Below, one piece after another: positions 39,196 through 64,000 of a stretch of DNA of 64,000 nucleotides. Source of the stretch: a virus; the IMG/VR virus record IMGVR_UViG_3300043540_000091, positions 1 to 64,000 of that record, one strand, 5' to 3'. A model generated the notes under the pieces. The model was not told where the DNA came from. It worked only from the letters and a program-made list of their open reading frames with translations, and did not search any database. The position numbers were made by a program, and so were the translations under genes. Each line of letters begins with the position of its first letter. Position 1 is the stretch's first letter.

Positions 39196-40302
39196 TTAGC
39201 GTCCTTCCATCTTCTTGGACTTCTTAGGTTCCCAAGGCTTCTTGAGATCTTCTTTGATCTCTTCCTTGCTCATACGTATACCAGCCGGTTTAGCTGGCAT
39301 CTTTGGAGCTGCCATGGCAGGCTTCGGAGCAGCCGGAGCTGGCGCGGGAGCGGCCATTGCCTTGGTCAACTCTTCAAACTTGGCAGGCTCGTTCTTGGCA
39401 AGATCGATTAGATCTTTGGCTGCCTTGATGATCTCTGCTTTGTTCATGGGTTTCTTCTCGTCGGCGGACATACCTGCCTCCTTGTTCTCTTCAGATCGCG
39501 CTTGTGATGGATCGTGTAAGGTGCGAAGATGCGCGAGCATCGCACGCTGGCGTTCTGGGGTATCCAAGATCTTCATGGCATGACCGATCGTGTCGGCATG
39601 CTCAGATACATCATGAGCCTTGTCCTGCGGGCTGTTAGGCGCATGAGGCATATCGTCCTTCTTGACCTCGGACAGAGCCAAGCCCATCTCGGATGTTTTT
39701 TCCATTTCCTTCTCGGCCTTGGGCAGATTGGGCTTAGGCATTTCTTTAAGTTCTGCCAGCTTGTCCTTGTGCTGTTCCTTCGCCCAAGCGTTTGTCTTAG
39801 CGCTTGCGCCGCCAGGTGCCATGTGAGCTCCGACGCTTGAAGTTCCAGTCTTATGGCTTGCTCCGAAGTGAGCTTCGTGAACGCCCTTCTGTTTGCCCTT
39901 CTCGCCCTTTTCCATCTCAGCCTTGGGGAGGTTCGGCTTAGGAGCTTGCTTCATGTGAGCGAGACGGTCAGCAGCATCTTCCTTGGCCGATGACATGTAC
40001 TGCGCCGGTTCACGGACCTTCGTACCCATCGAGGATTGACCGGCTGGACGGCGCGGATCTTGATGGTTGATGCCGAAGTGATGAGAACGATTGGGATCAT
40101 TGTTGGTTATGAAGTTGCCGCCATGCTTGTCAGGGCCTATGTTACGCTTCCACTTCTCGTGGTGCGCGGCAGACGCCATGGACTTGCGACGTGCCTGTTC
40201 TTCTTTCGGAATAGCCTTGCCAAGTTCTTGAAATTGCTCAGGGTTTTCCTTAGCAGCCTTCAAGAGTCCCTTCGCTTGTTGAATAGCCTTATCTCTGCTC
40301 AC
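39196..40302 (-). CDS. Linker-rich late protein with PKPNLPKAE repeats
   Basis: 368 residues from a GTG with TAGGAG upstream. Low-complexity, Lys/Glu/Ala/Pro/His-rich. Two copies of PKPNLPKAE (about 125 and 198) recur in the protein at 46977-48917. Its ends share a repeated helix (AAKENPEQFQELGKAI and LAKNEPAKFEELTKAM), so N- and C-termini are paralogous. Many sites fit the hydrophobic-x-K-(S/A/T) pattern proposed as a maturation cleavage motif. Possibly an internal head or scaffold protein; this is inference. Confidence 0.55.
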   Translation of the reverse strand: MSRDKAIQQAKGLLKAAKENPEQFQELGKAIPKEEQARRKSMASAAHHEKWKRNIGPDKHGGNFITNNDPNRSHHFGINHQDPRRPAGQSSMGTKVREPAQYMSSAKEDAADRLAHMKQAPKPNLPKAEMEKGEKGKQKGVHEAHFGASHKTGTSSVGAHMAPGGASAKTNAWAKEQHKDKLAELKEMPKPNLPKAEKEMEKTSEMGLALSEVKKDDMPHAPNSPQDKAHDVSEHADTIGHAMKILDTPERQRAMLAHLRTLHDPSQARSEENKEAGMSADEKKPMNKAEIIKAAKDLIDLAKNEPAKFEELTKAMAAPAPAPAAPKPAMAAPKMPAKPAGIRMSKEEIKEDLKKPWEPKKSKKMEGR

Positions 40303-40326
40303 CGTGCAATTCTCCTAACTGATCGA

Positions 40327-40335
40327 AAGATTAGG
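40327..40335 (-). promoter_or_regulatory. Late-promoter-like box before linker-rich gene
   Basis: CCTAATCTT on the minus strand, five bases after the TGA of the 766-residue gene and 24 bases before the GTG. Confidence 0.5.
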
Positions 40336-40339
40336 TTAT

Positions 40340-42640
40340 TCATGCAGGCTCTTCCGAATGGACCTTTACCGGATGGAACATGGCAACCACGTTCGGCAGC
40401 GGCGAGCTGGAGTTGGTGTAGCCGTGGTATCCGGCGTCACGTATCCTGCCAAGGATCATGTCAGAGTTCCACGCGCCGCCGTTGTCAGAGATCGCGGACT
40501 TCACATGGCTATCTGGATCTTTGGCGAGGTCATAGATCTTGGTCGTGTGAGGCAAGGACACCTTGTACTTCGCCGAAGAGCGGCTGCGCACGATGTCTTC
40601 CGGTTGAGATCCGGCACGATAGAAGTAGGAGCGAGCAACTTCCGGCAGGCCGCGCTTGTATTCCTGTGATGGTGCGCCGGTACCCATGTGACCAGGAGAG
40701 ATCTCGCTCAGTCCCTTGATCGCGCTGTAGTGTTCAAGCTGGATCGGAGCATTCTTTGCCATCGGATGAGGGAAGTTGAGTCGGAACTTGAAGGATGACC
40801 CGTCAGGCATGCGTACTTCAGTGTGATCTCCGGATGGATCTGTCACCTCAGAGTGACCAGCGCCGATGCCCATCGGTTTGTGAGACGGATGCGTTGCGAT
40901 CTCTTCGTGTTGCCCATGCTCTCCGTGGATGACCGCGAGCTGCCCATACTTCTTACCGAGCTGTATCGCATGCTCTCGCGACATTCCTGGAACGACGTAG
41001 CTAGGCTCGGTAGAGCCTCCCCATCGACCGACAGCATGAAGAGGTGAGTACCCAAGGCTCGCAACGTCAGACAAGAACGACTTGTGCGCTGCGGCGTTGT
41101 CAGCCTCTCCTGCTCCAGATCTGTGAGGAGTCAGGATCGCGAACCGGCCATTGGTAAGAAGCTTGGAGACGTGCTCGGAGTTCTTTGCAAGATCGCTCTT
41201 GGCCATGCGCTTCTTGAGCTTCGATCTGAAATACGCCTGAGCCTTACTGCGAGCTTCTTCATGATGGCCCTGGCCGCGAAGATTGATAGCGGTATGAGGC
41301 GACGGCTTGGTTACCCATCCTTTATCCGGTGAGTACTTCGCGTTTGAAGACTCGCGTTCCTCGAACAGCTTGGCTGTCTCAGGAGTATAGACTTCCTTAC
41401 CTCCGGCGATGTACTTACCGTTTGGCAGCTTGCGAGCTACCTGTACGTCCGGACGATCTGCGGCCATCTCGAATCCAGGCTTCTTGACTACACGTCCCTT
41501 CGCGTGAGCTGGGAGCCCAAGCTGACGACGGATCTGGTTCTCGCGAGCGGTCGATTCGTACTCGTCCTTGACACGCGCCTGTTGCTTGTATCCGTACTTT
41601 ACGTTCTGCGCTCCCCACTCCTTGTCCATCATCTCCTGGAACTGCTTCATGGCTACCTTCTCAGGTGCCATGTCCAAGTGAGCGAGTTCGTGAGCGAGAG
41701 AGTCGGGATTGCCGATATGTTCAAGATATCCAGTAGTTAAGTCGGGCTTGTTGATCATTTTTCCGGAAGAAGATTTCTTGCCCTTTGCCTGCCTTACCTT
41801 AACTCCATACTTCTTCTCGGCGTACTCAGACAATGTCTTCATCTGCTTCGCGCGTTGCTTGGAGTTGGGAGAGGTCTTCCAACTTCCAAACACCTTCTTG
41901 CGCTGCTCACGAACGTTCTTTGACTTCTCGAGGTCGTTTACAGTCGCTTCAGACTTGCCGCCGCCGAAGCCGATCGCAGCAAGGAGTTGCTTACTTTCTT
42001 GAGCTACGTTGTCGAGTCCAGTCTTCTCCGGCAGTCCTCCTGACAAGCTTTGCTGGATGGCCTTGCCCTGTTCAGCCGTGGGGAACTTCGGAGGAGTCGT
42101 GCCGCCTGGTTCGATCTTCTTCGCGGGAAGCTCTCCCTTGATCGTAGTGTATCCTGGCTTCACGTTCGGATTGATGACCTTGCCGCCCTCGCCTATTCCA
42201 AGCAGCTTCTCAGACATGCGGCGACCTTCGTTCTGGTCTCGACGCCAAACGCTCGTTACGAAGCGTGCTGCCTCTTCTCTGGCTGGATGATTGTATGGGA
42301 CGGGCTGGCCGGATAAGAAATGTTGCTTGAGAGAATCTGGGATCTGAACACCGGCGACATGGGTAGTCTCCGGAGTCTTCGGCACGATGGCAGATCCGAC
42401 CTTCTTAGACTTCTGGATGACCTTCCCGAAACCCTTGGGCTTGGGAGGCTCTTTGACGGTGACAGAGCCAAGAGGCTGCTTCGGCGGTTCCTTCATAGTG
42501 ACCGAGCCGAGAGGCTGCTTCGGAGCTGGCTTAACGGTGACAGATCCAACGGGAGGAGTCGCCGTGGGCTTCACGGTAACGGTACCGAACTCTCCGGATC
42601 TAGCTAACTTCTTGCCAAAAATCTTCTTGAAGGCGTTCAT
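40340..42640 (-). CDS. Multidomain protein: HExxH, DUF3293 and C-terminal module
   Basis: 766 residues. Parts in order: N-terminal tandem repeats of about 13 residues (GSVTVKEPPKQPL, four copies, 20-70); a helical region; a putative zinc metallopeptidase with LAHELAHLD near 316 and a downstream Glu-rich helix; a linker MAKSDLAKNSEH near 485; a DUF3293-like domain (NGRFAILTPHRSGAGEAD ... GQLAVIHG, about 495-570); and a C-terminal module starting HYSAIKGLSEISPGHMGTG (about 637). Such chimaeras occur as virion or polyvalent phage proteins. It has no Shine-Dalgarno; the late box lies six bases from the ATG. Likely packaged; delivery into the host is inference. Confidence 0.65.
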   Translation of the reverse strand: MNAFKKIFGKKLARSGEFGTVTVKPTATPPVGSVTVKPAPKQPLGSVTMKEPPKQPLGSVTVKEPPKPKGFGKVIQKSKKVGSAIVPKTPETTHVAGVQIPDSLKQHFLSGQPVPYNHPAREEAARFVTSVWRRDQNEGRRMSEKLLGIGEGGKVINPNVKPGYTTIKGELPAKKIEPGGTTPPKFPTAEQGKAIQQSLSGGLPEKTGLDNVAQESKQLLAAIGFGGGKSEATVNDLEKSKNVREQRKKVFGSWKTSPNSKQRAKQMKTLSEYAEKKYGVKVRQAKGKKSSSGKMINKPDLTTGYLEHIGNPDSLAHELAHLDMAPEKVAMKQFQEMMDKEWGAQNVKYGYKQQARVKDEYESTARENQIRRQLGLPAHAKGRVVKKPGFEMAADRPDVQVARKLPNGKYIAGGKEVYTPETAKLFEERESSNAKYSPDKGWVTKPSPHTAINLRGQGHHEEARSKAQAYFRSKLKKRMAKSDLAKNSEHVSKLLTNGRFAILTPHRSGAGEADNAAAHKSFLSDVASLGYSPLHAVGRWGGSTEPSYVVPGMSREHAIQLGKKYGQLAVIHGEHGQHEEIATHPSHKPMGIGAGHSEVTDPSGDHTEVRMPDGSSFKFRLNFPHPMAKNAPIQLEHYSAIKGLSEISPGHMGTGAPSQEYKRGLPEVARSYFYRAGSQPEDIVRSRSSAKYKVSLPHTTKIYDLAKDPDSHVKSAISDNGGAWNSDMILGRIRDAGYHGYTNSSSPLPNVVAMFHPVKVHSEEPA
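42450..42600 (-). repeat. Imperfect 36-39-bp repeats at 5' end of 766-residue gene
   Basis: Encode four copies of a GSVTVKEPPKQPL-like peptide. DNA copies have diverged more than those of the fibre gene. Confidence 0.6.
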
Positions 42641-42646
42641 GGTCTA

Positions 42647-42655: not shown

Positions 42656-43837
42656 CTAATACGTCCTGAGTACCTGGATACCAGACGTAAGTTCGAGTGG
42701 ATGTATGATGATGCCTGCGTCCTCGGCGGAGATGGCCGGTCCGAACGATGACAGTTTCTTGAACGTGGGTTCATCGATCTCCACATGTGGCTCGTTTGAG
42801 CTAGACGTAGGTCCTATAGGAGACGTCGCGGCCATGAGGTGAGTCAGCTTCTCTGGCATCCCATGGACCACCAAGACGTGCTTCTTGCGGCCAACGGCTG
42901 CGATCTCTTGAGGAACGAACACGAGCTTTGACGATTGGATCGGAACGGAGGCATCGTGCGCGGACACCAGCTCGTGCAGCTTAGGATGCTGTGCGGCGGC
43001 CATCGGCCCAAAGTTCTTTACCACCATGCGAAATGGCTTGCCGTCATCGCTAGACGTACGTCCATATACCGTGACGGGGTACGACAAGATGAGATCCTTC
43101 TGGACCGGTTCTGCCTTCTTAAGTGACGGATCTTTTATGAAGCTGTTTGCCCAATGCACCGCGTCCTGAGTCATGTCTCGACTGCGGACGATCTTCTTGC
43201 CGGAGATCTTCTGAGCGTGCGCGGCCATGGTCGTCCCGATACCTTTACGACGATGAAGTCTGTTCACCTCGAAGTTGAACGGCATCAGGTCGCCGGACGG
43301 CGTATGGGTTACAGCCAAGAAACCAACCTGCTTCCCGCCACGTATAGCCTTGACGATGAAGTCGTGATTCTTTGGGTTGAACGCGCCTGGATCAACCGCA
43401 AACGATTCGACCTTGATCTTTGTAGCGGACTTCTCAACAGGCTCAGGCTTCTTCATCGTGTGGTTCATCCATTCCACGAGGATGTTACGTTCTTTTGGAA
43501 TGTGAAGGCTGTCGTGCGACGTCGGATCAAGGAACTTGAAGGTGACGAACTCTGAGTCAGGATCTGCGCCAGCATACGGGCTGAAGCCTTCCGGATACTC
43601 ACACGAGAACAGGTGAACGTGGGCGTCTCCATACATGTTCTCGTGCATGTGGTCGAGCTTAACTCCCTTGAGTCCAGTCTCTTCCTCGAGTTCGCGTGAC
43701 GCGGCTTCGCTGTCGATCTCGCCGCTCTTCGCATGTCCACCTGCCAATGCCCACCTATGATTGTCACGACGAAGGCCGTGCAGAAATAGGTTCGGCATCT
43801 CAGGATGTCTGATTGCGATGGCGACGATCTTCTTCAT
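42656..43837 (-). CDS. Nudix hydrolase - GNAT acetyltransferase fusion
   Basis: 393 residues. The Nudix box GX5EX7REUXEEXGU is intact (GGHAKSGEIDSEAASREL then EEETGL, about 36-59). After the linker KKPEPVEKSATK (about 128-139) comes a GNAT-like domain with the acetyl-CoA loop RRKGIGTTMAAHAQK (about 200-214). After a second linker KKAEPVQKD (about 238-246) is an unassigned C-terminal domain. Both linkers contain the proposed cleavage motif, so it may be a polyprotein of three pieces. The ATG overlaps the upstream stop (TAATG). Its location among neck genes is unusual for a metabolic enzyme. Confidence 0.75.
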   Translation of the reverse strand: MKKIVAIAIRHPEMPNLFLHGLRRDNHRWALAGGHAKSGEIDSEAASRELEEETGLKGVKLDHMHENMYGDAHVHLFSCEYPEGFSPYAGADPDSEFVTFKFLDPTSHDSLHIPKERNILVEWMNHTMKKPEPVEKSATKIKVESFAVDPGAFNPKNHDFIVKAIRGGKQVGFLAVTHTPSGDLMPFNFEVNRLHRRKGIGTTMAAHAQKISGKKIVRSRDMTQDAVHWANSFIKDPSLKKAEPVQKDLILSYPVTVYGRTSSDDGKPFRMVVKNFGPMAAAQHPKLHELVSAHDASVPIQSSKLVFVPQEIAAVGRKKHVLVVHGMPEKLTHLMAATSPIGPTSSSNEPHVEIDEPTFKKLSSFGPAISAEDAGIIIHPLELTSGIQVLRTY

Positions 43838-44796
43838 TAAGGGTCTTCCTCCATCTTCCATCCCTGCGACTGAGCGTAGATCTGGTATTCATCTGGAGTG
43901 CGCGGACCGTCAATGATCCTGATGCCGCCCTTGATACCTTGGATCTTGGGAGCTGCGTACTTGATGAAGTTAGCTTCTACCTGGCCCGACAAGCTCATCG
44001 AGCAGCTGTATACACGCTCAGCTCCGTTGAAGTGCGGGTTCTCATCGATAGACCCAAGAGTGAAGGTCGATAGCTCGAATCCTCTACGCTCAAGATACGC
44101 TTCTTTGTAGCGGAGGAAGATGTACTGCGCGATCTGTCTAAGCCATATCGCCTGATTAAGATCAGACTCGGCGTGCAGGCCTATGGCGAACTGCTCTTCG
44201 AGGAAGGTCAGTTCCTTGTTCAGGTTCCACAGCGCGGTGGGCGGTACTACGTACGCATTGGTGAAGTCATCGTCGATGCCAGGTGTTATGAGGAACGCCT
44301 TTGGTCCGAGAACGGCGTTGATCACGTATGCCTTACTCGAACGCTTGGACACAAGATACTGCCCTGGCAACATGTTCGTGGTGTCGATGTTGTCGGGCAG
44401 GGTGAAGAGCCCCTTCTGCTTGTTGTACGCCTTAGGAGTGAACTCTGTATATGTCACCTGGATCTGCTTCGTGATATCGATCGGATCAAAATCTTCCTCT
44501 GATCCGATGTCCGCGAGTGAGTCTCGCTCTGTCATCTCTCTTGAGGAGGTGCGTACCACGGTAATGCAAGGGAAGCGAGGGGTGTCGACGCGGTTGACCA
44601 GGTAGACATCGATGTTGTTGCCAAGGAACCACTCCCTCGCACGTTGGATCTCCTTGTGACCATAGTCTAGTCGAGCGAGAGGATCGTTCGCGAGATCTGC
44701 GAAGATGTCGTCCAAGATCCAGTTGTTCTTGCGCAGGTCGGCAAGCGCTCCCTCGATCATGGTCTTGATAAGGATGTCAGTCGCGAGTATTCCCAT
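43837..44796 (-). CDS. Neck / tail-completion protein candidate
   Basis: 319 residues, alpha/beta, without low complexity. Position between the gp10-like protein and the Nudix fusion, and length, suggest a head-tail joining or tail terminator protein. Contains YVVPPTALWNLNKELTF and ends MEEDP. No family can be named with certainty. Confidence 0.5.
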   Translation of the reverse strand: MGILATDILIKTMIEGALADLRKNNWILDDIFADLANDPLARLDYGHKEIQRAREWFLGNNIDVYLVNRVDTPRFPCITVVRTSSREMTERDSLADIGSEEDFDPIDITKQIQVTYTEFTPKAYNKQKGLFTLPDNIDTTNMLPGQYLVSKRSSKAYVINAVLGPKAFLITPGIDDDFTNAYVVPPTALWNLNKELTFLEEQFAIGLHAESDLNQAIWLRQIAQYIFLRYKEAYLERRGFELSTFTLGSIDENPHFNGAERVYSCSMSLSGQVEANFIKYAAPKIQGIKGGIRIIDGPRTPDEYQIYAQSQGWKMEEDP

Positions 44797-46976: not shown

Positions 46977-48917
46977 TTAGATACCGTGGTTCTTCTTGAT
47001 CAGCAGCCTTGCTTTAAGAGTCAAGAGGAACATCTTCACTGCTTCTGGATCGGCATCCTTGTCAAACTCAAGTCCGTACGTTCCATCGCTCTTTCGGATG
47101 GCATGAACGAACTTGGCCGGATGCCCTTCCTCGTCCTTCTTCAGAACTCTGAAACATGCGCACGGAGTAAACTCAGGGTTACCGTCTTCGCCCTTCACGA
47201 ACTCGGGCTTGCCACATTCCGGACAGGTAGACTTGAAGAGCATCTCTTCTGTGGCGATCTCGGTCTTGCCGAGCTTGCTACGGAAGTAGTCGCTCTTGGT
47301 CATATTCGGCTTCATGGTCGGGTTCTTCGGCTTCATAGCGCCTGGAGTCTGAGGAGGTTTGTACCCGCCGGTACCAGACATCTGAGCTTGCTTGGCTGCA
47401 GAGGCCTGCGGATTATTGCCAGCCGGTACCGGAGGTTTGGGAGGCTGCGGAGCGTGAGGAGCCTTCGGCTGACCTGCGCCTTTCGGCATCTCCGCCTTGC
47501 CCATCTCTTCCTTCTTGACGTGCTCGGGAAGATCTCTACCTTTAGACTCCTGATCCCAGTGATGAACAGCTTCCTTGCCGCCGAGAGCCTTGGTCCCAGC
47601 ATCGGTGTGAGCCCAGCGACGCTGAGCATCTGAAGCGTATGGCTTGGACAGAAGTTCTGACTTCGGAAGGTTTGGCTTAGGCATCTTCTTATACTGAAGA
47701 AGATCTCTCTGGCGTCCCCAGAATGCAAGAGGAGATTGTCTGCTGTCGCCTCTGGCCTTCGGATGAAGATGTTCGTTTGTTCCAGACGGCTTGACAGCTG
47801 CGTCAGCTCGCTCTTGTCGAATCTTACGCTTCTCTCTGTCGGATGGACCAGACTCGAGCTTGGCCTTCTCCATCTCTTCCTTCTTGATACCATCAGAAGA
47901 CATGCGCTGCTCTATGCCGGTCTGTTGTTCCTTCTGTGTGGCAGCCATGCGCGGAGACGCGATGTTGCGAGATGCCTGCTGGTTTGCTGCCTTGTTGCCA
48001 TCAGTCGCAGTGGACATGGCTTGCTTAGCCATCTTACCTTCAGCGGCATCTTCGCCTTCCTTGACCTTCTTAGGTTCTGGGCCTTCCTGAGCAAGCTTCT
48101 GAGTAGGTTCTGCTTTATGGTCACGGACCTCGAGGATGGACTGTTGCTTCTCTTTGATTGCAGGATTCGCGGCGATTGCCTTGATGTCAGCCTTGTTCTT
48201 CTCTTCTGGAGTCTGAGCGTTCTCACGCTTCTGCGGATCGCCCTCGACTTCCTTCTCAGATACCTTATCCAACTCGTCCTCCAGCTTCCTGCCAAACATA
48301 TGGCGAGCGGTCAACGAGTCGACTAGCTTGCCTATTACTGCTGTAAGTTCGCGCACGTTTGCGTGCGACATCTCCCACTTGATCTGTTCAGGATCGCTCG
48401 CAGGCTTAACGTTGGCAAGCTCTATCATTTGGTGTAACGCGGAGAACTCAGGCTTCTTACCTTCCTCAGAGTGCTTCTCCTCAGAGATTTCCAAGGCCTT
48501 TTCGTGATCATAGACCTTTGCTACTTCAGGCTTATTAGCTTCACCGAACTCATCATACAACTCGCCGACCGTCATGAGGTGGGCAGACGCTGCGGGAAGG
48601 GACTGCTTCTCGAACGAATGAATAACTCGACCGCCCGACACAAACTCGGCGCGGTACTGGTCGATGTCCTGCTTCTCAAAGTGGATGGCGATGTCGTCGC
48701 GACCAGGGAACTTGACGTCCTTGATCTCACCTGGTTTCATGGGCTTGATCGTTTGGATAAGCCACGACAGGATGGTACGCGGGACGACGATGAGAGGAAG
48801 GTAGTATTCCAAAGGATCTACGACAGCCTGAGTCCGTTGCTTATAGATGGCCTTCTCGAGAGTCTCGTACCCTCGATCACCAAGCATGGCTTTAAGCAAC
48901 TTCTGGCTGTCGTTCAT
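46977..48917 (-). CDS. Linker-rich multidomain protein with zinc ribbon
   Basis: 646 residues from the ATG with AAGGA upstream. A folded N-terminal domain (about 1-130) leads into 400 residues of charged, Pro-rich disordered sequence containing PKPNLPKSE (about 410) and HVKKEEMGKAEMPKG, then a C-terminal domain with a zinc ribbon (CPECGKPEF ... CACF, about 563-590) and a short beta-alpha part. YFRSKLGK at about 545 also occurs as YFRSKLKK in the 766-residue protein. Many hydrophobic-x-K-(S/A/T) sites, including LFKS just before the zinc ribbon, could release the C-terminal domain. Confidence 0.55.
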   Translation of the reverse strand: MNDSQKLLKAMLGDRGYETLEKAIYKQRTQAVVDPLEYYLPLIVVPRTILSWLIQTIKPMKPGEIKDVKFPGRDDIAIHFEKQDIDQYRAEFVSGGRVIHSFEKQSLPAASAHLMTVGELYDEFGEANKPEVAKVYDHEKALEISEEKHSEEGKKPEFSALHQMIELANVKPASDPEQIKWEMSHANVRELTAVIGKLVDSLTARHMFGRKLEDELDKVSEKEVEGDPQKRENAQTPEEKNKADIKAIAANPAIKEKQQSILEVRDHKAEPTQKLAQEGPEPKKVKEGEDAAEGKMAKQAMSTATDGNKAANQQASRNIASPRMAATQKEQQTGIEQRMSSDGIKKEEMEKAKLESGPSDREKRKIRQERADAAVKPSGTNEHLHPKARGDSRQSPLAFWGRQRDLLQYKKMPKPNLPKSELLSKPYASDAQRRWAHTDAGTKALGGKEAVHHWDQESKGRDLPEHVKKEEMGKAEMPKGAGQPKAPHAPQPPKPPVPAGNNPQASAAKQAQMSGTGGYKPPQTPGAMKPKNPTMKPNMTKSDYFRSKLGKTEIATEEMLFKSTCPECGKPEFVKGEDGNPEFTPCACFRVLKKDEEGHPAKFVHAIRKSDGTYGLEFDKDADPEAVKMFLLTLKARLLIKKNHGI

Positions 48918-49357: not shown

Positions 49358-50266
49358 TCATAGCATGCCGCCGTCCGGTCCAGAATCGTTTGGTCCAGTG
49401 ACTCCGCCAACGGGAGGAGCGCCTTGGAATCGCTGGTCCATGATATGCTGGTTCGGATCTCGGTTTTGGTCGCTAAGTACGTGTTCTCTAATGACTAATG
49501 CCTGAAACGGTGTACGCTGAAGCTTGCGATTGAAGGTTTCAGGATCGGTGACCTGCGAAACCCTGATCTCGTGGAGCATCCGCGCTACGATGAAGTACGG
49601 GGTATACCGGTATCGGATGGAATATACCGTACCACGGCCAAGCTTCTCGTTGAATCCTGGTCGGTCCTGGCTGATCCACTTGATGAAGCCTTCCTTGGTG
49701 ATCTCGAAGTGCGTTCCTTCCTTGTATTCCTTGCCGTCCGCGTCGATTAGGTGCTCGACGCAGGTCGCTGGATACTGAAGCTTGTCTACTCCGGTCGTGT
49801 TCGCTTCGACATACTGGAAGGCGATGACTCGGACCTCGATATCTTTGAGGTAGAATCGGTCCCACGGTGCTAGAAGAACTTCCTTGTCTGGGCAGTTCTC
49901 GTACCATAGCTGGCTCGTCACTATCGCGACGTCGTGTTTGGTCATACCCTCGACCTCTACGTTCCAGTCGGACGTATTCTGGCTAAACCACAGAGTCAGT
50001 TCGCCTACCTCCTTGTAGATGAAGCCGTCAGACGACTGGCGTTTAGACTGGACAGCATGAACGTCGCCGATGGATGCCATGCCTGACGGATCTGGTATCG
50101 CACGCATGTGGATGACTTTGACGCCCTGACCTCTGATCAGACTCTCGAATGCTTCCATGTCGAAGGACTGCTGGAACTCGCCGAGCTTGAAGATTTGCTG
50201 CATCGCATCGGTCGGCTTGGAGGCCCTGGCTCGCGGACCGCCGCGACGTTTAGGATTGTCAGCCAT
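49358..50266 (-). CDS. Structural protein, unknown
   Basis: 302 residues with a basic N-terminus (MADNPKRRGGPRARASK) and Gly/Pro tail. AAGGAGG six bases before the ATG at 50266 fixes the start. Mostly beta/alpha, no family recognised. Its position between capsid and neck genes suggests a head component. Confidence 0.55.
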   Translation of the reverse strand: MADNPKRRGGPRARASKPTDAMQQIFKLGEFQQSFDMEAFESLIRGQGVKVIHMRAIPDPSGMASIGDVHAVQSKRQSSDGFIYKEVGELTLWFSQNTSDWNVEVEGMTKHDVAIVTSQLWYENCPDKEVLLAPWDRFYLKDIEVRVIAFQYVEANTTGVDKLQYPATCVEHLIDADGKEYKEGTHFEITKEGFIKWISQDRPGFNEKLGRGTVYSIRYRYTPYFIVARMLHEIRVSQVTDPETFNRKLQRTPFQALVIREHVLSDQNRDPNQHIMDQRFQGAPPVGGVTGPNDSGPDGGML

Positions 50267-50753
50267 CTTGGTCCTCCTTGAGGTCCTCGCAGTCTTGAGC
50301 AAGAGTCACCGGACTGGAAAGAGATGTGTCTCTCACCATGGCATACCGTGAAACTGTTCCGGACTTGAGTTCTTCCATTAGGTCAGACTTTCGCATGACT
50401 TCAATGGAACCCTTATTGATGTCGTATACCATGTAGACTCCGGTCTTGTCACCGTTTGTTGACAGCGGAGTCAGGATCGCATTGCGCATCCTCTGGAACA
50501 GCTCTCCTTCTGACTTGGTAAGATCTTCAGACTTATGGAAGTCTTCCTTCCACTTGATGTCATGCTTCTTGCTGGCAAGGTACTTGGCGATGGCGCGGTG
50601 AGGAGCCGCTCCAATCGACGAGATGGAACCATCCTCGTCCTTCATGAAGAACGCGTGCAGGCCGCCCTTGGTAGCGATATACACCACCGGCTTCCCATCG
50701 GTTGTCTTGCCAGCTATAGCCTTCTTTTCGATCTGATCAGAGCTGATCTTCAT
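50259..50753 (-). CDS. Hypothetical head-region protein
   Basis: 164 residues. Contains FHKSEDLTKSEGELF and VMRKSDLMEE, three further copies of the (hydrophobic)-x-K-S-(E/D) pattern. The N-terminal half is a beta-rich domain. Overlaps neighbours by one and eight bases. Confidence 0.55.
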   Translation of the reverse strand: MKISSDQIEKKAIAGKTTDGKPVVYIATKGGLHAFFMKDEDGSISSIGAAPHRAIAKYLASKKHDIKWKEDFHKSEDLTKSEGELFQRMRNAILTPLSTNGDKTGVYMVYDINKGSIEVMRKSDLMEELKSGTVSRYAMVRDTSLSSPVTLAQDCEDLKEDQDG

Positions 50754-51790
50754 TACTTCCTCTCATTGGCGGTCTTTACGTTGTCCGCCAGCTTCTGCAT
50801 AGAAGACTTCATCGAGTCGGGCTTGACTTCATCCAGCTTCTCGTCGCGTATCCGGCCTGGATCTGGCTGAAAGTTAGAAGAGCGCATCGGATCTTCTGTG
50901 ATCTCATCTTCTCTTCGCTTGTACCAGTTCTTTACCCTCATCTTGAAGTCTTCAGATTCCACTTCAGGCATCGACTTCGACAGTCCTGTAGGTTTCCTGA
51001 ATGGATTGAGCTGGCTTATGGCGGTGAACTTATTTACATAATCGCTGCTGGACAGCTTATCCTTGGTGATGTCGCGTGGCATCAGATTGTGGCCATGCAG
51101 CCACGCATACGCAGCTCTCTGCAGGTTACCACCCTGTCTCCTTATCACATGCTGAGCAAGCCTCCTGGCCAACCCAAGCTCGATCTGCGGATTCTTCTTG
51201 AAGTGCTCGTCCAGCTGGTCGCGCGACATGTTCTCCAGCTTCGCATACTCTGGAGTCAAAGATCCGTCCATGCGCATCCTGCCAACGAGTTCCTTTACGG
51301 TAGGCTTGAGCAATCCCCACTTGCCAACCGCTCTCATCCCCTTGAACTTGCCAGATCTGATCGGTTTGTGATTGACGTTGTTGCCTCCAGAAGATTCGAT
51401 CTGCTGGATGTTCCAAAGGAAGCTGTCGCTCGGATGACTGCCGAAGTCATCTTTGGGAGCTTCTGCCTGGACAGGAGTTGCATGCATCGAAGGAGATACC
51501 ATAGGATGCGGAGCTTGTGTAACGGAAGGAACTGAAGAAGCCAGGGCAATGCCGAGTGCCGCAGCCTTGGATCTGAGAGACTTCGATATCTCGGCGTCTT
51601 CAACCCAAGACCTCATGTTGTGGCCATCTAAGTATTCAGCAATGCACTGTACTGCCTCTTTGAGAGTACTGCAGCCCATGGCGATGTCTTCGGCCATCGG
51701 GAAATGCATGTAGACCTGCGCCAGATCCTCGACATCGGAGATCTTGTACCACTGGCGTTCTCCTGGCGCGAACTCAACATACAAAATCAT
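50753..51790 (-). CDS. Virion-associated lytic transglycosylase (SLT-like)
   Basis: 345 residues. The SLT-type core lies at about 125-250: WNIQQIESSGGNNV (catalytic Glu133 in ESS), GKWGLLKPTV, a helix with LGLARRLAQHV and AAYAWLHGHN, and YVNKF. This fold cleaves peptidoglycan glycan strands. An N-terminal domain and a hydrophobic segment (about 72-90) precede it; the C-terminus is charged. Encoded among head genes, it would help the genome cross the host wall after injection. Linker sites EISKSL and GLSKSMPE flank the core. Confidence 0.75.
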   Translation of the reverse strand: MILYVEFAPGERQWYKISDVEDLAQVYMHFPMAEDIAMGCSTLKEAVQCIAEYLDGHNMRSWVEDAEISKSLRSKAAALGIALASSVPSVTQAPHPMVSPSMHATPVQAEAPKDDFGSHPSDSFLWNIQQIESSGGNNVNHKPIRSGKFKGMRAVGKWGLLKPTVKELVGRMRMDGSLTPEYAKLENMSRDQLDEHFKKNPQIELGLARRLAQHVIRRQGGNLQRAAYAWLHGHNLMPRDITKDKLSSSDYVNKFTAISQLNPFRKPTGLSKSMPEVESEDFKMRVKNWYKRREDEITEDPMRSSNFQPDPGRIRDEKLDEVKPDSMKSSMQKLADNVKTANERK

Positions 51791-53625
51791 GCAGCTCCTC
51801 TCTGGCCAGCTATCCTGCTACGGTAGGATTCAGCCCAAGATTTGAGCATCTCCTTCTTGTCTTCCGGCATTTCGTCGATGGCGTTGGCGATGGCTTCCAT
51901 GTGAGGGACTTTGTACACCGGATTGTTGTCCTTGTCATAGCCCTTCATCTCCCAGAAATGCCGAAGCATCCGGTTCTTTGGATCTACGTCTGGGTTGGAC
52001 CGAACGGCTTCAGTCTCCATGTAAGGATTGCCAGCCAGAGACTTGAACGCAGAGGCCGCTTCCTCCGGAGTCATGCTGTCCAAGATGTTCTCGAGCGCAG
52101 ACCTCAGCATGTGAGTCTGGTTGTAGGTAAGATTCGGCTTGCGGTTCACCATGTCGGCGATTGCAAACATAGCGTCGCGCTTGTCTTTAGGAAGTGAGCG
52201 TATGGACTTGGCGCTGATCCGAGGAGTCTCCGGCTTCTTGATCCTGGCCGACTCAAAGGTGTTTCCCAGTGACTCTTGGTTGTACATGTGATCTGAGTCA
52301 GGATCTGCAGCCATCGACTTGGCCCACTGGTCCATCTTATGCCAACGGTCCATGAAGTTGCTACGGATGTGCTTGCGAAGAGTCTCGTCCTTGACTGAGC
52401 TGAGTTGATTCTCCATCTCGTCTCTGATGTTGCCGCCGTTGCCGTTCCACCAGTCGACGAGATCTTGGTGAGAATGCCAACCGCCGCCTGCCGAGTTCTG
52501 AGCGTGGTTCAGGACAGAGCCTTTTATGTAAGCCCAAGGCGTTTCCTTGTCCAGCGGAGACTGATCGGCTGCGCCGCCGAACATCATTCGCTGCCTGCGA
52601 TTCATGGCAGAGTCTTTGATTGGCTTATGGTACTGGAAGTTGCGTTCATGGTCGATGGCTAAGACAGGATCGTATCCGCGAGCATCGCTGTGACTGCCTA
52701 CCATCAAGTTACCCTGGTGCCGATCGAGATTGTTCGCGAGGTAGTCCATGACTCCGATCTTATGCACGTCAGAAGGATTCACAGTTCTCTCGATCCGGTA
52801 TCCACCGCGCGGCTGCCACACCATCAGAGAGCCTATCGGCTTATGGTCCTTGGCGAACTTGTGCACGGTCAAAGGGACTCCTTCATGTTCATGAGCAGAG
52901 ACGTCTTCCGCCAGGTGACCGATCTTGCCAGCGTTGAAGAGTACCTTCGTCGCCATTGTTGCCCAGCCGGTGATCGGAGCTTTAACCCAGCTCTTGGTGT
53001 GATACTCAAGCTTCTTATGGTACGGCTTGGCCATGTAGATGTCGGTATACACCGGCGGCTTGTGTACAGGACGAACCATCTTGGCAGAGATACCTCCGAT
53101 CGAGTCATCGTCGTGAGCGGCTACCTTCTCTGGGCTCGCCAATAGCTTGCCGTAGTCAGCGTGCACGGGAAACTGTTTCAGGTGTGCGGCATGGTCCACA
53201 GTCAGGTGCGCGTCGGGATGCTGCTTCTTTGCTACGCGATTCCAGTCCTTCGCCTTGACTGCCTTCGAGAGGTCGCTGAGAGACAGTCCATTGAGATAGC
53301 CGGTAGTCTCAGAAGCAAGGCGCTCGCATGACTTTCTAAGCATACACTTCTCGAAGTTCGATCCTACCTGATGGTTTATCTCCTGGGCAAACTTGGGATC
53401 GGTAAGATAGGACTCTACGAAACGTAGAACATCCATGCCCTTTGACATCCGCTTCATGATGGAAGGCGACTTCGACTTCACGAGAGCGGCGAATGCGTCT
53501 GCGGCTTCCTGTCCAAGCTCAGACGACAAGGCTTCGACGAACGCATCTACGCGCACGACCTCCGGAGATCCTGTTTTCTCTAGGCGGTCATATCGTCTGT
53601 CGAGCCAGCGTCTGATCTTACCCAT
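51787..53625 (-). CDS. HipA/PI-kinase-like domain protein
   Basis: 612 residues. A catalytic loop LANNLDRHQGNLMV near 296-309 and a metal-binding IDHERNF near 323-329 match the N-x-D-R-H-x-x-N ... (A/I)-D-x kinase signature of HipA and phosphatidylinositol 3/4-kinase-like enzymes, preceded by a plausible ATP-Lys region around 225-260. C-terminal helices (about 460-612) are unassigned. The N-terminus has RLEKTGSPE, a possible processing site. A kinase made with head proteins may be packaged and phosphorylate host targets; this is inference. Confidence 0.6.
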   Translation of the reverse strand: MGKIRRWLDRRYDRLEKTGSPEVVRVDAFVEALSSELGQEAADAFAALVKSKSPSIMKRMSKGMDVLRFVESYLTDPKFAQEINHQVGSNFEKCMLRKSCERLASETTGYLNGLSLSDLSKAVKAKDWNRVAKKQHPDAHLTVDHAAHLKQFPVHADYGKLLASPEKVAAHDDDSIGGISAKMVRPVHKPPVYTDIYMAKPYHKKLEYHTKSWVKAPITGWATMATKVLFNAGKIGHLAEDVSAHEHEGVPLTVHKFAKDHKPIGSLMVWQPRGGYRIERTVNPSDVHKIGVMDYLANNLDRHQGNLMVGSHSDARGYDPVLAIDHERNFQYHKPIKDSAMNRRQRMMFGGAADQSPLDKETPWAYIKGSVLNHAQNSAGGGWHSHQDLVDWWNGNGGNIRDEMENQLSSVKDETLRKHIRSNFMDRWHKMDQWAKSMAADPDSDHMYNQESLGNTFESARIKKPETPRISAKSIRSLPKDKRDAMFAIADMVNRKPNLTYNQTHMLRSALENILDSMTPEEAASAFKSLAGNPYMETEAVRSNPDVDPKNRMLRHFWEMKGYDKDNNPVYKVPHMEAIANAIDEMPEDKKEMLKSWAESYRSRIAGQRGAA

Positions 53626-60287: not shown

Positions 60288-60307
60288 ATGGACCTCCGTT
60301 TCATACC

Positions 60308-60336: not shown

Positions 60337-60580
60337 CTGAAGATTGCTTTGTCCCAGAACGAGACACAGCCTGCTCGAATATGTCGAAGAATAGCTCATG
60401 GTCAAACACCACGAACATCAGAATGTCAATGACCTGTTCCTTGGTCAGAGTTTGAAGGGCCTGCTCTGCAGCCAGTTCCAGCCCTGACTTCATGGCCTCG
60501 ACCGAAGCAGATCGGTCCGCGCGGCTGGTCAGGTTCAAGATCTCTTCCGTGAATCTTACGACCGCGTCTTCTCTACTCAT
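60329..60580 (-). CDS. Hypothetical helical protein
   Basis: 83 residues, helical and acidic. ATG overlaps the upstream stop by four bases. No family. Confidence 0.6.
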   Translation of the reverse strand: MSREDAVVRFTEEILNLTSRADRSASVEAMKSGLELAAEQALQTLTKEQVIDILMFVVFDHELFFDIFEQAVSRSGTKQSSVD

Positions 60581-61185
60581 CTGGCCGCCATGTTGTAGCG
60601 CTTGCCAGAGTAGATCTCGTAGAGCGACTCGTTCTCGATGTCCTTGTTGGTGATGCCGAACTCATCGTACATCCACTTCTTCCAGCGGCCAAGGATCTTG
60701 AGAGAGTCCGCAACGGGAGCCTCGTGGACCTCGACCTCGAGGAAGTCGCGCGTGGGCGCTCCGTCGACCGTCACGCGATACCAGACCACGTCGACGATAT
60801 ACCTGCCTTCCTGGATGAAGTATATGTCGCAGTCCTTGTGAATCGGTAGGATCTTGGTTATACCAAGCTCTCGCATGAAGTCCTGGACCTGGATCGGAGA
60901 CGTTTCCTTGGCGAGCTTGAGGTTGATCTCGCGGCGGCGCGTGGTGGACTTCTTGGACAGGCGAGCCTTGATGGTCAGCTCGTTGGTCGTAGATCCGTGG
61001 CGATGGCGCGGGACGCCGCGATTCGATTTGTAGTAGTAGTCGAAGCCAGCCACGGTCAGCTTGCGGAACTTCTTGCCTCGAACGTACTTGCGGATCGCCT
61101 TGTTGAAGTCAGAACGCTCGACCGGCTTGTCCAGCTCGGTCGAGTAGCCGCTCCACTTGATCTCGATCTCTTCGTTCTTGGCCAC
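60577..61185 (-). CDS. CYTH-domain protein
   Basis: 202 residues. The N-terminal EIEIK motif (ExExK), LTIKARL, REINLKLA and FLEVEVHE strands, each with alternating charged residues, form the triphosphate tunnel of CYTH enzymes (class IV adenylate cyclase, thiamine triphosphatase, polyphosphatase). The activity in phages is untested. Its ATG overlaps the upstream stop by one base. Confidence 0.7.
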   Translation of the reverse strand: MAKNEEIEIKWSGYSTELDKPVERSDFNKAIRKYVRGKKFRKLTVAGFDYYYKSNRGVPRHRHGSTTNELTIKARLSKKSTTRRREINLKLAKETSPIQVQDFMRELGITKILPIHKDCDIYFIQEGRYIVDVVWYRVTVDGAPTRDFLEVEVHEAPVADSLKILGRWKKWMYDEFGITNKDIENESLYEIYSGKRYNMAAR

Positions 61186-61499
61186 TATCCAGCCTTGTCC
61201 GGTACGGGCATCGCGAGGAACGCGTTGATGACCTCAGGAGTGCTGTTGCGTAGCTCGCGGACCGTGCGGCGAAGCACGTTCATGGCCTGCAGCATCTCGA
61301 CGTCGAAGAGCTTGGGTTCCATCTTGCCGGTGTCAGGGTTCTTCTCCATGATCACGCCGCCCTTGCCGTCCTTTTTCATGAACTTCTTGAAGACTCCGGT
61401 GCCGGTGAAGGTGATCTCATCCTTCACGCCCATCTCCGTCAGCTTCTTGGTGAGGAGTCTCGAGATTCGCTTCTGTTCCTTCTTCGATAAGTACGACAT
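61185..61499 (-). CDS. Hypothetical protein, first of leftward operon
   Basis: 104 residues, very basic at the N-terminus (SKKEQKRISRLLTKKL). AGGAGG and an ideal promoter precede it. Function unknown. Confidence 0.65.
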   Translation of the reverse strand: MSYLSKKEQKRISRLLTKKLTEMGVKDEITFTGTGVFKKFMKKDGKGGVIMEKNPDTGKMEPKLFDVEMLQAMNVLRRTVRELRNSTPEVINAFLAMPVPDKAG

Positions 61500-61517
61500 G
61501 GTACCTCCTGTCTCGGT

Positions 61518-61545
61518 ATTATACGCCAAAACGACTTTCTTGCAA
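61518..61545 (-). promoter_or_regulatory. Strong sigma70-type promoter, leftward
   Basis: TTGCAA, 16-base spacer, TATAAT on the minus strand, with AGGAGG and ATG following. Confidence 0.75.
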
Positions 61546-61552
61546 GTAGGTG

Positions 61553-61581
61553 TTGACACTGGACCAAGGTCGTGAGAAGAT
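61553..61581 (+). promoter_or_regulatory. Divergent promoter, rightward
   Basis: TTGACA, 17-base spacer, weak -10 GAAGAT. GGAGG and ATG (61601) follow. The -35 of both divergent promoters are eight bases apart. Confidence 0.55.
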
Positions 61582-61600
61582 GGCCTGACTGGAGGTTCAT

Positions 61601-61921
61601 ATGAAGTTTGGAGAAGCACTTGACATGGCGATGCAGATCGTGGACGACGTCTTGAATACTCCTGGCTACGGCCAGCAGCGTCTAGCGATGACGCTCGAGA
61701 ACAAGCCCATCATCGACGAGCTTGTCGCCGCCGCTGAGAGCAATCCGTTCCTGGAATGGTTTGCAATGGGAACTGTGGATACGACGAACGGATACTTCGT
61801 GATCCGCGCCAAGTACATGAGCGTCAACGACTTTCACTTCCCGTCAGATCCTGATCCGGTGCCGGATAACGTGATCCACGTTGACTTCCGCGCACGCCGC
61901 CGCGTGAAGAGAGCCGCCTAG
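61601..61921 (+). CDS. Hypothetical protein
   Basis: 106 residues, alpha/beta with a very basic C-terminal tail (DFRARRRVKRAA). Single-gene rightward transcript ending in a hairpin. No family recognised. Confidence 0.65.
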   Translation: MKFGEALDMAMQIVDDVLNTPGYGQQRLAMTLENKPIIDELVAAAESNPFLEWFAMGTVDTTNGYFVIRAKYMSVNDFHFPSDPDPVPDNVIHVDFRARRRVKRAA

Positions 61922-61927
61922 AAAAGC

Positions 61928-61953
61928 GAAAGGCCCAGTTTCCTGAGCCTTTC
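61928..61953. terminator. Terminator between convergent gene and capsid gene
   Basis: GAAAGGC/GCCTTTC stem with an inner CAG/CTG pairing; on the minus strand it is followed by CGCTTTTC. It would stop late transcription after the capsid gene and early transcription from the left. Confidence 0.7.
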
Positions 61954-61981
61954 ATCAAGATCCTTACTTTTAATCGACGAC

Positions 61982-63373
61982 TTAGAACAAGTTGTCGACG
62001 ATGACGTTCTTGCGGGGTTGGTAACCGGCAAGAGTCCGGAAGCAGAAGTGAGCTTCCGGAACGCTGAGATCCGAGATAGCCAGCTTCATGCGGCTGTACG
62101 GAGCCAGTTCGTGGAATCCCCAGCAATCCTTCTGGATGAGGTATCCAGTCACGAAGGCCGGAGCCTTGTTGCCGAGGTCAGTGAACACAACCGAGGCAGC
62201 GCCGTTCGCAGCCATGCGACCGATGTACTTGGCGTTGGTAGCCGAGATACCGCGATACACGTTGTAGTGAGTAGCACCGGCCACGCCAGCGATCGTCAAG
62301 GAGACGTGCTGACCGGAGGTCACAGCCACGCCAGCCGAAGCGACTGCCACGCCTTCCGAGCGTTCGTTCTCAGCCGTCACCAGGTACACATAGGTACCGG
62401 CGGGGATCAAGGCACCAGTGCCGGACGCTGCGCCAGTGGCGGAAGCGGGAGCGGCGGGAGCGCCGATGATCGGGCGGAGAGGAGCGGTCTTACCAGAGAG
62501 GAAGCGGCTGTCTTCGATGCCGACAGTGCCGTTCGATACCCATTGGCGGCGGAGGTCCGCGCCGGAGGCATCTTGAGCCGAACCTGCCAACACGATGCGC
62601 TGGATGCTGTTAGCACCAGAACCGAGGGCGAAGGCTTTGTTGTAACCCGACAAGATCGTCGGATCAACGAACAAGGTCTCAGCCTTACCCATGTTCATGC
62701 GGCTACGGAGAGCGGCATCTTCGATGATGGGCTGGTCAAGGGCACCGTTCTTCGACAGAACAACCGACTGATTGCTGCCGTACGAAGCGAACATGAGGTC
62801 CTGAGTCGACACCAAGATGTCCGACATACGGACTTGAGCGTCAACGCCGAGGATGTTCGGCAACTCGGGCATGGTCGCGGGGTTACCGTCGAACACACCG
62901 TTGTTCGAGAAGTCGGCCTTACCTTTGAAGGAGTCGAACTCGATGTCCGCGCTCAACTTGATCGCGGCGTTATCGGCCTCACGATCTTCAGCCTTTTTGC
63001 CGTCGATGGTCTCAACCATGTTGGCGGCCACAGTCACGCGTTCAACGCAGCTGTAGAAGCACATGGGGACCGTCGCACGGATATAGTCGCCGACGTTCAG
63101 ATCGCCAACCGCGCCTTCGCGCTGAGCCGATCCGCCGAAGCGTCCATAAGACAGCTGACGGTTGAACTGAACCAGGAGGGACTTCGCCTTCTTGACGCCA
63201 AACAGCTTCTGCAGCTTGATGTGGCTGTCGTCGAAGGTGACGTTCTGCATCACCGGCTCGAGGTTCTCGATCTGCAATGCAGATCCTTGGACCAACTGCG
63301 AGGGAGCTACGTTGTAGTTGCCAGCCTCGAGTGTTTTCACCAGACTCTCAAGAGTCTTGACGAGATCGTTCAT
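61982..63373 (-). CDS. Major capsid protein with Ig/FnIII-like insertion
   Basis: 463 residues. Position beside a scaffold-like gene, length and the N-terminal MNDLVKTLESLVKTLE plus FDDSHIKLQKLFG and SYGRFGGSAQREG segments fit HK97-fold capsid proteins of large phages. Residues about 305-405 are an inserted beta domain: an Ala/Gly/Pro linker, GTYVYLVTAENERSEG, then ATHYNVYRG and DLG, the FnIII/Ig-like pattern seen on capsid surfaces. The rest returns to the capsid fold up to KNVIVDNLF. Confidence 0.8.
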   Translation of the reverse strand: MNDLVKTLESLVKTLEAGNYNVAPSQLVQGSALQIENLEPVMQNVTFDDSHIKLQKLFGVKKAKSLLVQFNRQLSYGRFGGSAQREGAVGDLNVGDYIRATVPMCFYSCVERVTVAANMVETIDGKKAEDREADNAAIKLSADIEFDSFKGKADFSNNGVFDGNPATMPELPNILGVDAQVRMSDILVSTQDLMFASYGSNQSVVLSKNGALDQPIIEDAALRSRMNMGKAETLFVDPTILSGYNKAFALGSGANSIQRIVLAGSAQDASGADLRRQWVSNGTVGIEDSRFLSGKTAPLRPIIGAPAAPASATGAASGTGALIPAGTYVYLVTAENERSEGVAVASAGVAVTSGQHVSLTIAGVAGATHYNVYRGISATNAKYIGRMAANGAASVVFTDLGNKAPAFVTGYLIQKDCWGFHELAPYSRMKLAISDLSVPEAHFCFRTLAGYQPRKNVIVDNLF

Positions 63374-63374
63374 T

Positions 63375-64000
63375 TTACTTTCCCCCTTTGGAGTGTATTA
63401 GCTTCTCGATATCACCGTGTCCTTCACCAGTGATGAAGAACTTATTTACCAGTTCACGTTCGCTCTTTTCGAGCTTGGTCATCGGGATCTTGCGAAGAGC
63501 ATCCTTAGCCTGTTGCGCAGTCATCGCCTTAACTTCACCGCCATTGCTGGCCGGAGCGTCAAGCTCAGATTTCTGGATCACCTGGATGTCAGTGATCGAC
63601 TTGCGCGAGGGCTTCGTCAAGACCTCGAAGGCCTTCACGATCTGCTCGTTGGCTTGCACCAGCTCACCAACTTGCTTCTTCAACGCTTCAATCTCAACGT
63701 CCTTTTCGGACTTGCCCATCTCAGCCGGAGCTGCGGCGGGTTCTGCAGCGGGTTCTGCGGCAGGAGCCGGAGCTGCGTCAGCAGCGCCTTCATCCTGTGC
63801 ATACGATGCTTGCAGGGCCTGACGGAGGATCGAGTAATGACGCTCGAGTTCTTCCGGAGGCATGCTTGAATAGATCTGCGACAGTTCTTCATCAGAAAGA
63901 GGAGCATCTTCTGCGCCAGCTTCCTGTTCAAGAGCCTGATCGCCTTCTGCGGCAGGAGCAGCATCGGCAGCGGGAGCGGCAGGAGCAGCATCGGCAGCGG
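63375..64000 (-). CDS. Ala/Pro-rich scaffold-like protein, N-terminus beyond right edge
   Basis: The frame stays open to the window edge (208 residues visible). The right part is Ala/Pro/Asp repeats (AADAAPAAP), then DEELSQIYSSMPPEELERHY, an AAEPAAEP repeat and a coiled coil starting EMGKSEKDVEIEALKK. The C-terminal 60 residues form a helical domain ending LIHSKGGK. A disordered plus coiled-coil protein just upstream of the capsid gene is the usual build of a scaffold or core protein. Three (M/L/I)-x-K-S-E sites lie in it: MGKSE, IQKSE, LEKSE. Confidence 0.65.
   Translation of the reverse strand, partial: AADAAPAAPAADAAPAAEGDQALEQEAGAEDAPLSDEELSQIYSSMPPEELERHYSILRQALQASYAQDEGAADAAPAPAAEPAAEPAAAPAEMGKSEKDVEIEALKKQVGELVQANEQIVKAFEVLTKPSRKSITDIQVIQKSELDAPASNGGEVKAMTAQQAKDALRKIPMTKLEKSERELVNKFFITGEGHGDIEKLIHSKGGK

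What the first reader, a model, noticed from the sequence alone, without database searches (positions are those of the whole stretch)
39196..64000. Candidate virion polyproteins with a shared cleavage motif and host-directed enzyme domains
Head-region proteins share a recurrent linker motif, (L/M/I/V/F)-x-K-(S/A/T) often followed by E/D: MGKSE, IQKSE, LEKSE, LTKSE, MTKSD, LGKTE, MAKSD, LPKSE, LPKAE, MGKAE, VEKSA. It lies in Pro/Lys/Glu-rich linkers and between domains. In the Nudix-GNAT protein a copy sits between Nudix and GNAT and a related one (VQKD) before the third domain; in the 766-residue protein one sits between the HExxH and DUF3293 domains; in the 646-residue protein one precedes the zinc ribbon. 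T4 gp21 uses a similar short code, (L/I)-x-E. If processed, the phage would package a set of enzymes (Nudix, acetyltransferase, metallopeptidase, kinase-like, transglycosylase) for delivery at infection.
Basis: partly seen in the sequence, partly recalled or inferred. Interest (0 to 1): 0.85.

Follow-up and report, generated by a model that had tools for sequence, protein, structure and literature searches.

The report
Capsid-protease cut sites joining phage effector enzymes
In a large SPO1/Mx1-like phage, the short motif that the head-maturation protease most likely cuts (hydrophobic-x-Lys followed by Ser, Ala or Thr) also marks the joints between enzyme modules in large proteins that are probably packed in the head, which suggests the virus makes its effectors as polyproteins and trims them while the particle matures.

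Summary
The window belongs to a 138,678-bp phage record related to Myxococcus phage Mx1, with an SPO1-like head. [LMIVF]-x-K-[SAT] is enriched 1.6-fold (3.7-fold when followed by E/D) in its head module. Cargo proteins reach 2.2-fold and 6.5-fold. Tail and neck proteins show no significant excess. Mx1 repeats the pattern independently.

The motif sits at the major capsid protein (MCP) N-terminus in every relative read. It aligns with the point where the 439-residue solved chain of phage 812 MCP begins, directly after Lys24. In 55 aligned scaffolds, seven of the eight best-conserved lysine columns are motif lysines. The protease lies just beyond the window (contig 72447-74198); it carries a copy of the MCP N-terminal arm including the cut site, as do the SPO1, 812, Listeria and Enterococcus proteases.

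In the cargo, domain splits, permutations and insertions among relatives fall at these sites 1.6-3.5 times more often than at random positions. Examples are a VTC domain at K249 of the Nudix-GNAT protein and a zincin-like domain between duplicated KSE sites.

The cleavage reading is strongly supported by comparison, but cargo cutting, packaging and delivery are untested. Trypsin-based proteomics cannot see cuts after lysine.

The parts
61982..63373 (-). Major capsid protein; predicted cut LVK13|T14 (bond at about 63334/63335)
   Evidence: 52.6% identity to Mx1 MCP, about 28% to SPO1 gp6.1; L-x-K-[AT] invariant in the relatives read; aligns with K24|S25 of phage 812 MCP, whose 439-aa PDB chain starts after K24
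63375..64000 (-). Scaffold, 282 aa; the gene runs past the window end to contig 64223; sites LAK21, LAK27, MGK171, IVK197, IQK218, LEK253
   Evidence: Directly upstream of MCP as in SPO1/Mx1; homologous to Mx1 18798-19670; 7 motif-K columns conserved in 55 relatives. The protease itself lies outside the window at contig 72447-74198
42656..43861 (-). Cargo polyprotein Nudix - VEK144|S - GNAT - LKK249|A - 2H-phosphoesterase-like domain
   Evidence: Pfam NUDIX and weak GNAT; split between the first two domains in relative G002 (alignments end at 139, begin at 143) and a VTC domain inserted at the second site in G007
40340..42640 (-). Cargo polyprotein, 766 aa: linker - VPK88 - domain - LEK239 - HExxH domain - MAK481|S - DUF3293 - C-terminal domain
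   Evidence: DUF3293 510-570; blocks 93-150, 232-477 and 491-685 occur in another order in a 1290-aa protein of G002
39196..40302 (-). Linker-rich cargo or core protein, 368 aa, 8 sites including MPKPNLPK|AE twice
   Evidence: Motif list; same linker in the 646-aa protein and in relatives
46977..48917 (-). 646-aa protein; module 420-474 (QRRWAHT...ALGG...WD) between LPK419|S and MGK474|A; zinc ribbon after LGK551|T / LFK562|S
   Evidence: The short module alone matches in many relatives with limits close to 417-420 and 474-479
50259..50753 (-). 164-aa head protein with tandem sites FHK74|SE, LTK80|SE
   Evidence: In G002 about 305 aa with a zincin-like HEGFH motif are inserted exactly here, flanked by KSE sites on both sides
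50753..51790 (-). Transglycosylase-like cargo, 345 aa; ISK70|S followed by a signal-peptide-like segment
   Evidence: Homology to the Mx1 1480-aa polyprotein begins at that protein's LSK1063|S site; K invariant in orthologues; SLT Pfam in relatives
51787..53625 (-). Kinase-like (PI3K/HipA-type) cargo, 612 aa, 5 sites
   Evidence: PF00454; sites

Best explanation
The motif [LMIVF]-x-K|[S/A/T], often followed by E/D, is the recognition code of the phage's own procapsid maturation protease (an SPO1-lineage protease with an assemblin-like predicted fold). In the procapsid the protease trims the MCP arm after K13, chops the scaffold at about six sites, and probably cuts itself at a copy of the MCP arm. 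Proteins loaded with the scaffold (Nudix-GNAT-2H-like, zincin/DUF3293, transglycosylase, kinase-like and Zn-ribbon proteins) carry the same sites at their domain joints. They are therefore polyproteins, cut into single enzymes inside the head and probably ejected with the DNA. Shown here: motif enrichment, conservation, coincidence with the solved MCP start in 812, the copy in the protease, and domain shuffling at sites. Inferred: that cutting happens at the cargo sites, that cargo is packaged, and that it acts in the host.
For: Enrichment in head and cargo but not in neck or tail proteins, repeated in Mx1. MCP site invariant in relatives and aligned with the start of the 812 MCP chain of 439 residues. 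Scaffold: 7 motif-K columns are 7 of the 8 best-conserved K columns in 55 relatives. SPO1 scaffold has 11 KS sites against 0.7 expected and is the top protein of the SPO1 and 812 genomes in an unsupervised scan. Protease carries an MCP-arm copy: SPO1 protease 158-214 matches MCP 15-71, E 2.3e-6; five Herelleviridae; clearly in about 29 of 45 relatives. Logo conditioned only on KS gives P3 M/L and P2' E. Domain boundaries near sites 1.3-1.8-fold and 1.6-1.9-fold, or 2.5-3.5-fold for the strict motif, while controls lacking the hydrophobic P3 or with Arg show none. Individual splits and insertions.
Against: No virion proteomics of this phage or Mx1 was available. The rest of the genome shows a mild excess of the strict motif (16 against 8). 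Some proteases lack a recognisable MCP-arm copy, for example L062. Boundaries are not all independent, and one Glu control (ends) reached 1.6-fold by few counts. The deposited 812 chain may be trimmed by its authors for other reasons. Fold match to herpesvirus proteases is weak by E-value (3e-3).
Confidence: 0.78

Rival explanations
1. The motif is a cut site only in the MCP, scaffold and protease. In the multi-domain proteins it is a short docking motif that carries them onto the scaffold or protease, and they stay whole.
For: A protease-binding site could look the same as a cut site. Iyer et al. note that some polyvalent proteins (N4 virion RNAP, TraC1) travel unprocessed.
Against: Sites lie at domain joints and flank inserted domains on both sides; a docking motif would not need to do so.
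Confidence: 0.12
2. Cargo is processed by its own zincin (HExxH) domain, as proposed for polyvalent proteins such as P1 DdrB, and K-S-E linkers are just flexible linkers.
For: HExxH motif in the 766-aa protein; Iyer et al. 2017.
Against: The same code is in MCP, scaffold and protease of SPO1 and 812, where the Herelleviridae protease is the natural enzyme; the zincin-like module itself is inserted between KSE sites.
Confidence: 0.05
3. The pattern is a by-product of Lys/Glu/Ser-rich, low-complexity linkers.
For: Sites do lie in Pro/Lys/Glu-rich linkers, and the rest of the genome shows a mild excess of the strict form.
Against: Composition-preserving shuffles, Arg/Glu/reversed controls and K[SAT] without hydrophobic P3 do not show it; K columns conserved in scaffolds.
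Confidence: 0.03

Closest known systems
Herelleviridae (SPO1/812/Listeria P100-type) head maturation: MCP precursor, scaffold and procapsid protease
   Same: Gene order portal-protease-scaffold-MCP, MCP family (phrog_752), [hydrophobic]xK|[SA] at the MCP start, KS-studded scaffold, MCP-arm copy in the protease. From memory, not checked here: Listeria A511 Cps is reported to be cut after Lys23 (Loessner and Scherer 1995); the Listeria LMTA-94 MCP read here has K23-S24 at that place.
   Different: SPO1 and 812 show motif excess essentially in the scaffold only; multi-domain effector polyproteins with the code were seen only in the Mx1-like group.
Polyvalent proteins of phages and conjugative elements (Iyer et al. 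2017, PMC5512222)
   Same: Multi-domain proteins with NUDIX, GNAT, ART-PolyVal, zincin, 2H and peptidoglycan-acting domains encoded by portal-terminase phages, proposed to be packaged and injected.
   Different: That paper proposes processing by zincin domains; here the capsid protease's cut code lies at the joints.
SPN3US gp245 / phiKZ-type prohead protease (PMC10052503) and T4 gp21
   Same: One protease cuts MCP, portal, itself and ejected internal proteins at a short code; T4 gp21 recalled from memory.
   Different: Code there is AXE| (SPN3US) or (L/I)xE| (T4, from memory); here P1 is Lys, and substrates are multi-enzyme polyproteins rather than proteins with an N-terminal propeptide.

Membership tests
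SPO1-lineage procapsid maturation protease (assemblin superfamily) | Sequence homology to known members | tested here: met
   27% to Listeria proteases E 1e-4, 41% to Mx1; SPO1 protease hit E 1.6e-5; phrog_1028
SPO1-lineage procapsid maturation protease (assemblin superfamily) | Conserved His and Ser in the N-terminal domain | tested here: met
   H40 and S120 invariant in 17 proteases including five Herelleviridae
SPO1-lineage procapsid maturation protease (assemblin superfamily) | Herpesvirus-assemblin-like fold | tested here: inconclusive
   AlphaFold2 model of the orthologue L036; the top seven PDB matches are HCMV/KSHV proteases, best prob 0.99 but E 3e-3 and TM 0.2-0.4
SPO1-lineage procapsid maturation protease (assemblin superfamily) | Gene order portal-protease-scaffold-MCP | tested here: met
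   Same order, with cargo genes between, in G000 and Mx1; SPO1
SPO1-lineage procapsid maturation protease (assemblin superfamily) | Cuts MCP, scaffold and itself after Lys | not testable with these tools
   Needs enzyme assay or virion N-termini
Polyvalent proteins (Iyer et al. 2017) | Several effector domains in one chain, encoded by portal-terminase phages | tested here: met
   NUDIX+GNAT, DUF3293+HExxH, PI3K-like in the window; NUDIX+ART-PolyVal+GNAT in Mx1
Polyvalent proteins (Iyer et al. 2017) | Packaged in the virion and injected | not testable with these tools
   No proteome available
T4 gp21 / SPN3US gp245 cleavage code | Glu at P1 | tested here: not met
   P1 is Lys throughout; it works like those systems but uses another code

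The most novel reading that the evidence does not exclude
The capsid-maturation protease site is the joint of a modular effector system: enzyme modules bounded by K|S/A sites are gained, lost, permuted and inserted between phages, and are freed from polyproteins only inside the procapsid. In the transglycosylase modules the cut (K|S or K|G) would also unmask a signal-peptide-like N-terminus, so that an enzyme packed in the head could be exported to the cell wall after injection.
Probability: 0.4. Interest if true: 0.87.

Novelty: new variant of a known kind. Interest (0 to 1): 0.72.

Why it matters
How the multi-domain 'polyvalent' effectors of large phages are processed has been an open question, with self-cutting zincins as the main proposal. 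If the capsid protease does it with a readable code, the mature effectors of a whole phage group can be predicted from sequence. It also gives the SPO1 lineage, including B. subtilis SPO1, a testable cut code, and explains why it could be overlooked: trypsin, the usual proteomics enzyme, makes the same cut.

Tried and rejected
Chance or composition: rejected by shuffles and by Arg, Glu, reversed and non-hydrophobic-P3 controls. All head-region genes as one class: rejected, since neck/connector genes and the 55-61.6 kb genes lack the excess. The 2170-aa protein (contig 65330-71842) shows 7 sites in 2170 residues, so it is not counted as part of the system. T4-type Glu code: not met. Genome-contig scan for relatives found none, so no host information. 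Single-protein viral scan with the Nudix-GNAT protein found none. AlphaFold2 model of the Nudix-GNAT protein was poor (mean pLDDT 47.5, only the Nudix domain usable) and says nothing about exposure of the linkers. Literature search found no paper stating the Lys code for Herelleviridae; only open-licence papers are held, so absence is weak.

Full report
What the window is. The window is bases 1-64000 of a 138,678-bp virus record. Its major capsid protein (MCP, 61982-63373) is 52.6% identical to that of Myxococcus phage Mx1 and about 28% identical to SPO1 gp6.1 over 200 residues (phrog_752). Mx1 has the same late-gene order, and most head genes have a one-to-one partner. A scan of IMG/VR with the MCP gave 80 further loci.

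Observation. Residue shuffles within each protein give 81 against 51 for [LMIVF].K[SAT], and 25 against 6.8 with E/D following, in head genes. The tail gives 32 against 27 and 3 against 2.8. The rest gives 69 against 63 and 16 against 8. The excess sits in the seven cargo proteins (34 against 15.5; 13 against 2.0) and in scaffold plus protease (11 against 4.0), not in neck, connector and MCP proteins (10 against 7.7). Mx1, not used to define the motif, repeats it more strongly: KSE with hydrophobic P3 is 12 against 0.6 in head proteins and 0 in the non-head proteins tested. A logo conditioned only on 'KS' in 1286 non-redundant proteins of relatives recovers M/L at P3 and E at P2'.

Cleavage code. 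(1) In all relatives read, the MCP begins with a short leader ending L-x-K followed by A or T. In PDB, Staphylococcus phage 812-type MCP exists as a 463-residue sequence (5lii) and as a 439-residue chain (9row, 9rox, 9roz) whose residue 3 is Gln27, so it starts at Ser25, after VVK24. HMMER aligns K24 with K13 of the window MCP. (2) The scaffold, which capsid proteases normally destroy, carries up to nine strict sites in relatives. In an alignment of 55 scaffolds, seven of the eight best-conserved Lys columns are motif columns, 75-95% K against a mean of 46%. SPO1's scaffold has 11 such KS sites against 0.7, 812's 7 against 0.7, SIOphi's 7 against 0.6; five downstream neck proteins have none in excess. 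A blind scan of the whole SPO1 and 812 genomes puts the scaffold first. (3) The protease is just outside the window at contig 72447-74198. It matches Mx1 and Listeria proteases and phrog_1028, has invariant His and Ser, and the model of its orthologue best matches herpesvirus assemblins, with weak significance. It contains a copy of the MCP N-terminal arm with the site (LNK213|ALTAGMGNVAPGQLTGGAAL), and a PI3K-like domain follows it. The same copy is in SPO1 (E 2.3e-6), in four other Herelleviridae and, clearly, in about 29 of 45 proteases of relatives, at residues about 190 to 540. A self-cut that frees the catalytic domain is the simplest reading; an anchor that mimics the MCP arm is another.

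Cargo joints. Domain limits inferred from local alignments lie within 12 residues of motif sites 1.3-1.8 times more often than random. In the cargo regions of five relatives the figure is 1.6-1.9 times, and 2.5-3.5 times for the strict motif (28 of 98 starts against 8.0; maximum of 300 randomisations 16). K[SAT] without hydrophobic P3 and Arg versions show none. Concrete cases: the Nudix and GNAT-2H parts are separate genes in G002, where alignments end at 139 and begin at 143, beside K144. In G007 a VTC domain (Pfam E 5e-33) lies between GNAT and the third domain at K249. In G002 the 164-aa protein is interrupted at its tandem KSE sites by about 305 residues containing HEGFH, with KSE on both sides. 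The 766-aa protein's blocks 93-150, 232-477 and 491-685 recur in a different order, with limits within about 10 residues of K88, K239 and K481 for the inner ones. The transglycosylase, a separate gene here, is embedded in Mx1's 1480-residue Nudix/ART/GNAT protein, and the homology starts at the LSK|S site in both. A 55-residue QRRW module between LPK419|S and MGK474|A is found in many other contexts.

A further pattern. In transglycosylase modules of at least a dozen relatives a basic, hydrophobic, AxA-like segment follows directly after a K|S or K|G site. SP-like segments follow 31 of 2433 sites against 17 of 6260 random positions (sequences; SLT domain). This would be an export signal unmasked by the cut. 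It is a crude pattern match, not a trained predictor.

What is known. Polyvalent proteins (PMC5512222) describe this kind of multi-domain protein and predict packaging; for processing they propose zincins. SPN3US gp245 (PMC10052503) shows a capsid protease cutting ejected proteins, with an AXE code and propeptides. MCP cutting after Lys in Listeria A511 is recalled from memory. The link between the capsid-protease code and the joints of polyvalent proteins was not found in the papers that could be searched.

Why it may have been missed. Published SPO1-like proteomes include tryptic digestion (for example), and trypsin produces the same K|S ends.

Limits. No proteomics; the host of this record is unknown; boundary counts are not independent events; some proteases lack the arm copy; G-numbered relatives are metagenomic contigs.

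Noticed in passing
contig 72447-74198 (outside window), SPO1 NC_011421 41157-41927, 812 KJ206560 49336-50109: The procapsid protease of the SPO1 lineage carries a copy of the MCP N-terminal arm including the cut site; sequence searches with the MCP N-terminus find two places in most Herelleviridae records (581 records, 1021 places).
   Followed up: yes
50753-51790; L133, L040, L047, L064, L067, L079, L080, L088, L089, L153, L154: Signal-peptide-like segments directly after K|S or K|G sites, nearly always before an SLT transglycosylase-like domain.
   Followed up: partly
46977-48917 residues 420-474; L127, L128, L133, L136, L138, L079: A 55-residue 'AQRRWAHT..G..ALGG...V.EWD..(S/T)KG' module in several protein contexts, usually flanked by cut sites; may be a packaging tag.
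   Followed up: partly
42656-43861, third domain: Looks like a 2H phosphoesterase (HxT...HxS in the G002 copy), but the first His is lost in the window copy; possible relative of phage anti-signalling 2H enzymes.
   Followed up: no
contig 74180-74968 (outside window): GIY-YIG-type homing endonuclease-like ORF wedged between protease and MuF-like gene.
   Followed up: no
contig 65330-71842 (outside window): 2170-residue protein between protease and scaffold with repeat-like structure, no Pfam or PHROG match; C-terminal half homologous to a separate 1105-aa protein in G002.
   Followed up: no
scaffold alignment column 569 (window 'PSRKSIT'): The best-conserved Lys of the scaffold (98%) has the form P-x-x-K-[AS]-x-T and lacks the hydrophobic P3; either a different cut site or another function.
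   Followed up: no
39196-40302 and 46977-48917: The linker MPKPNLPK|[AS]E is repeated in two different proteins and recurs in relatives, as if the cut-site cassette itself were copied.
   Followed up: partly
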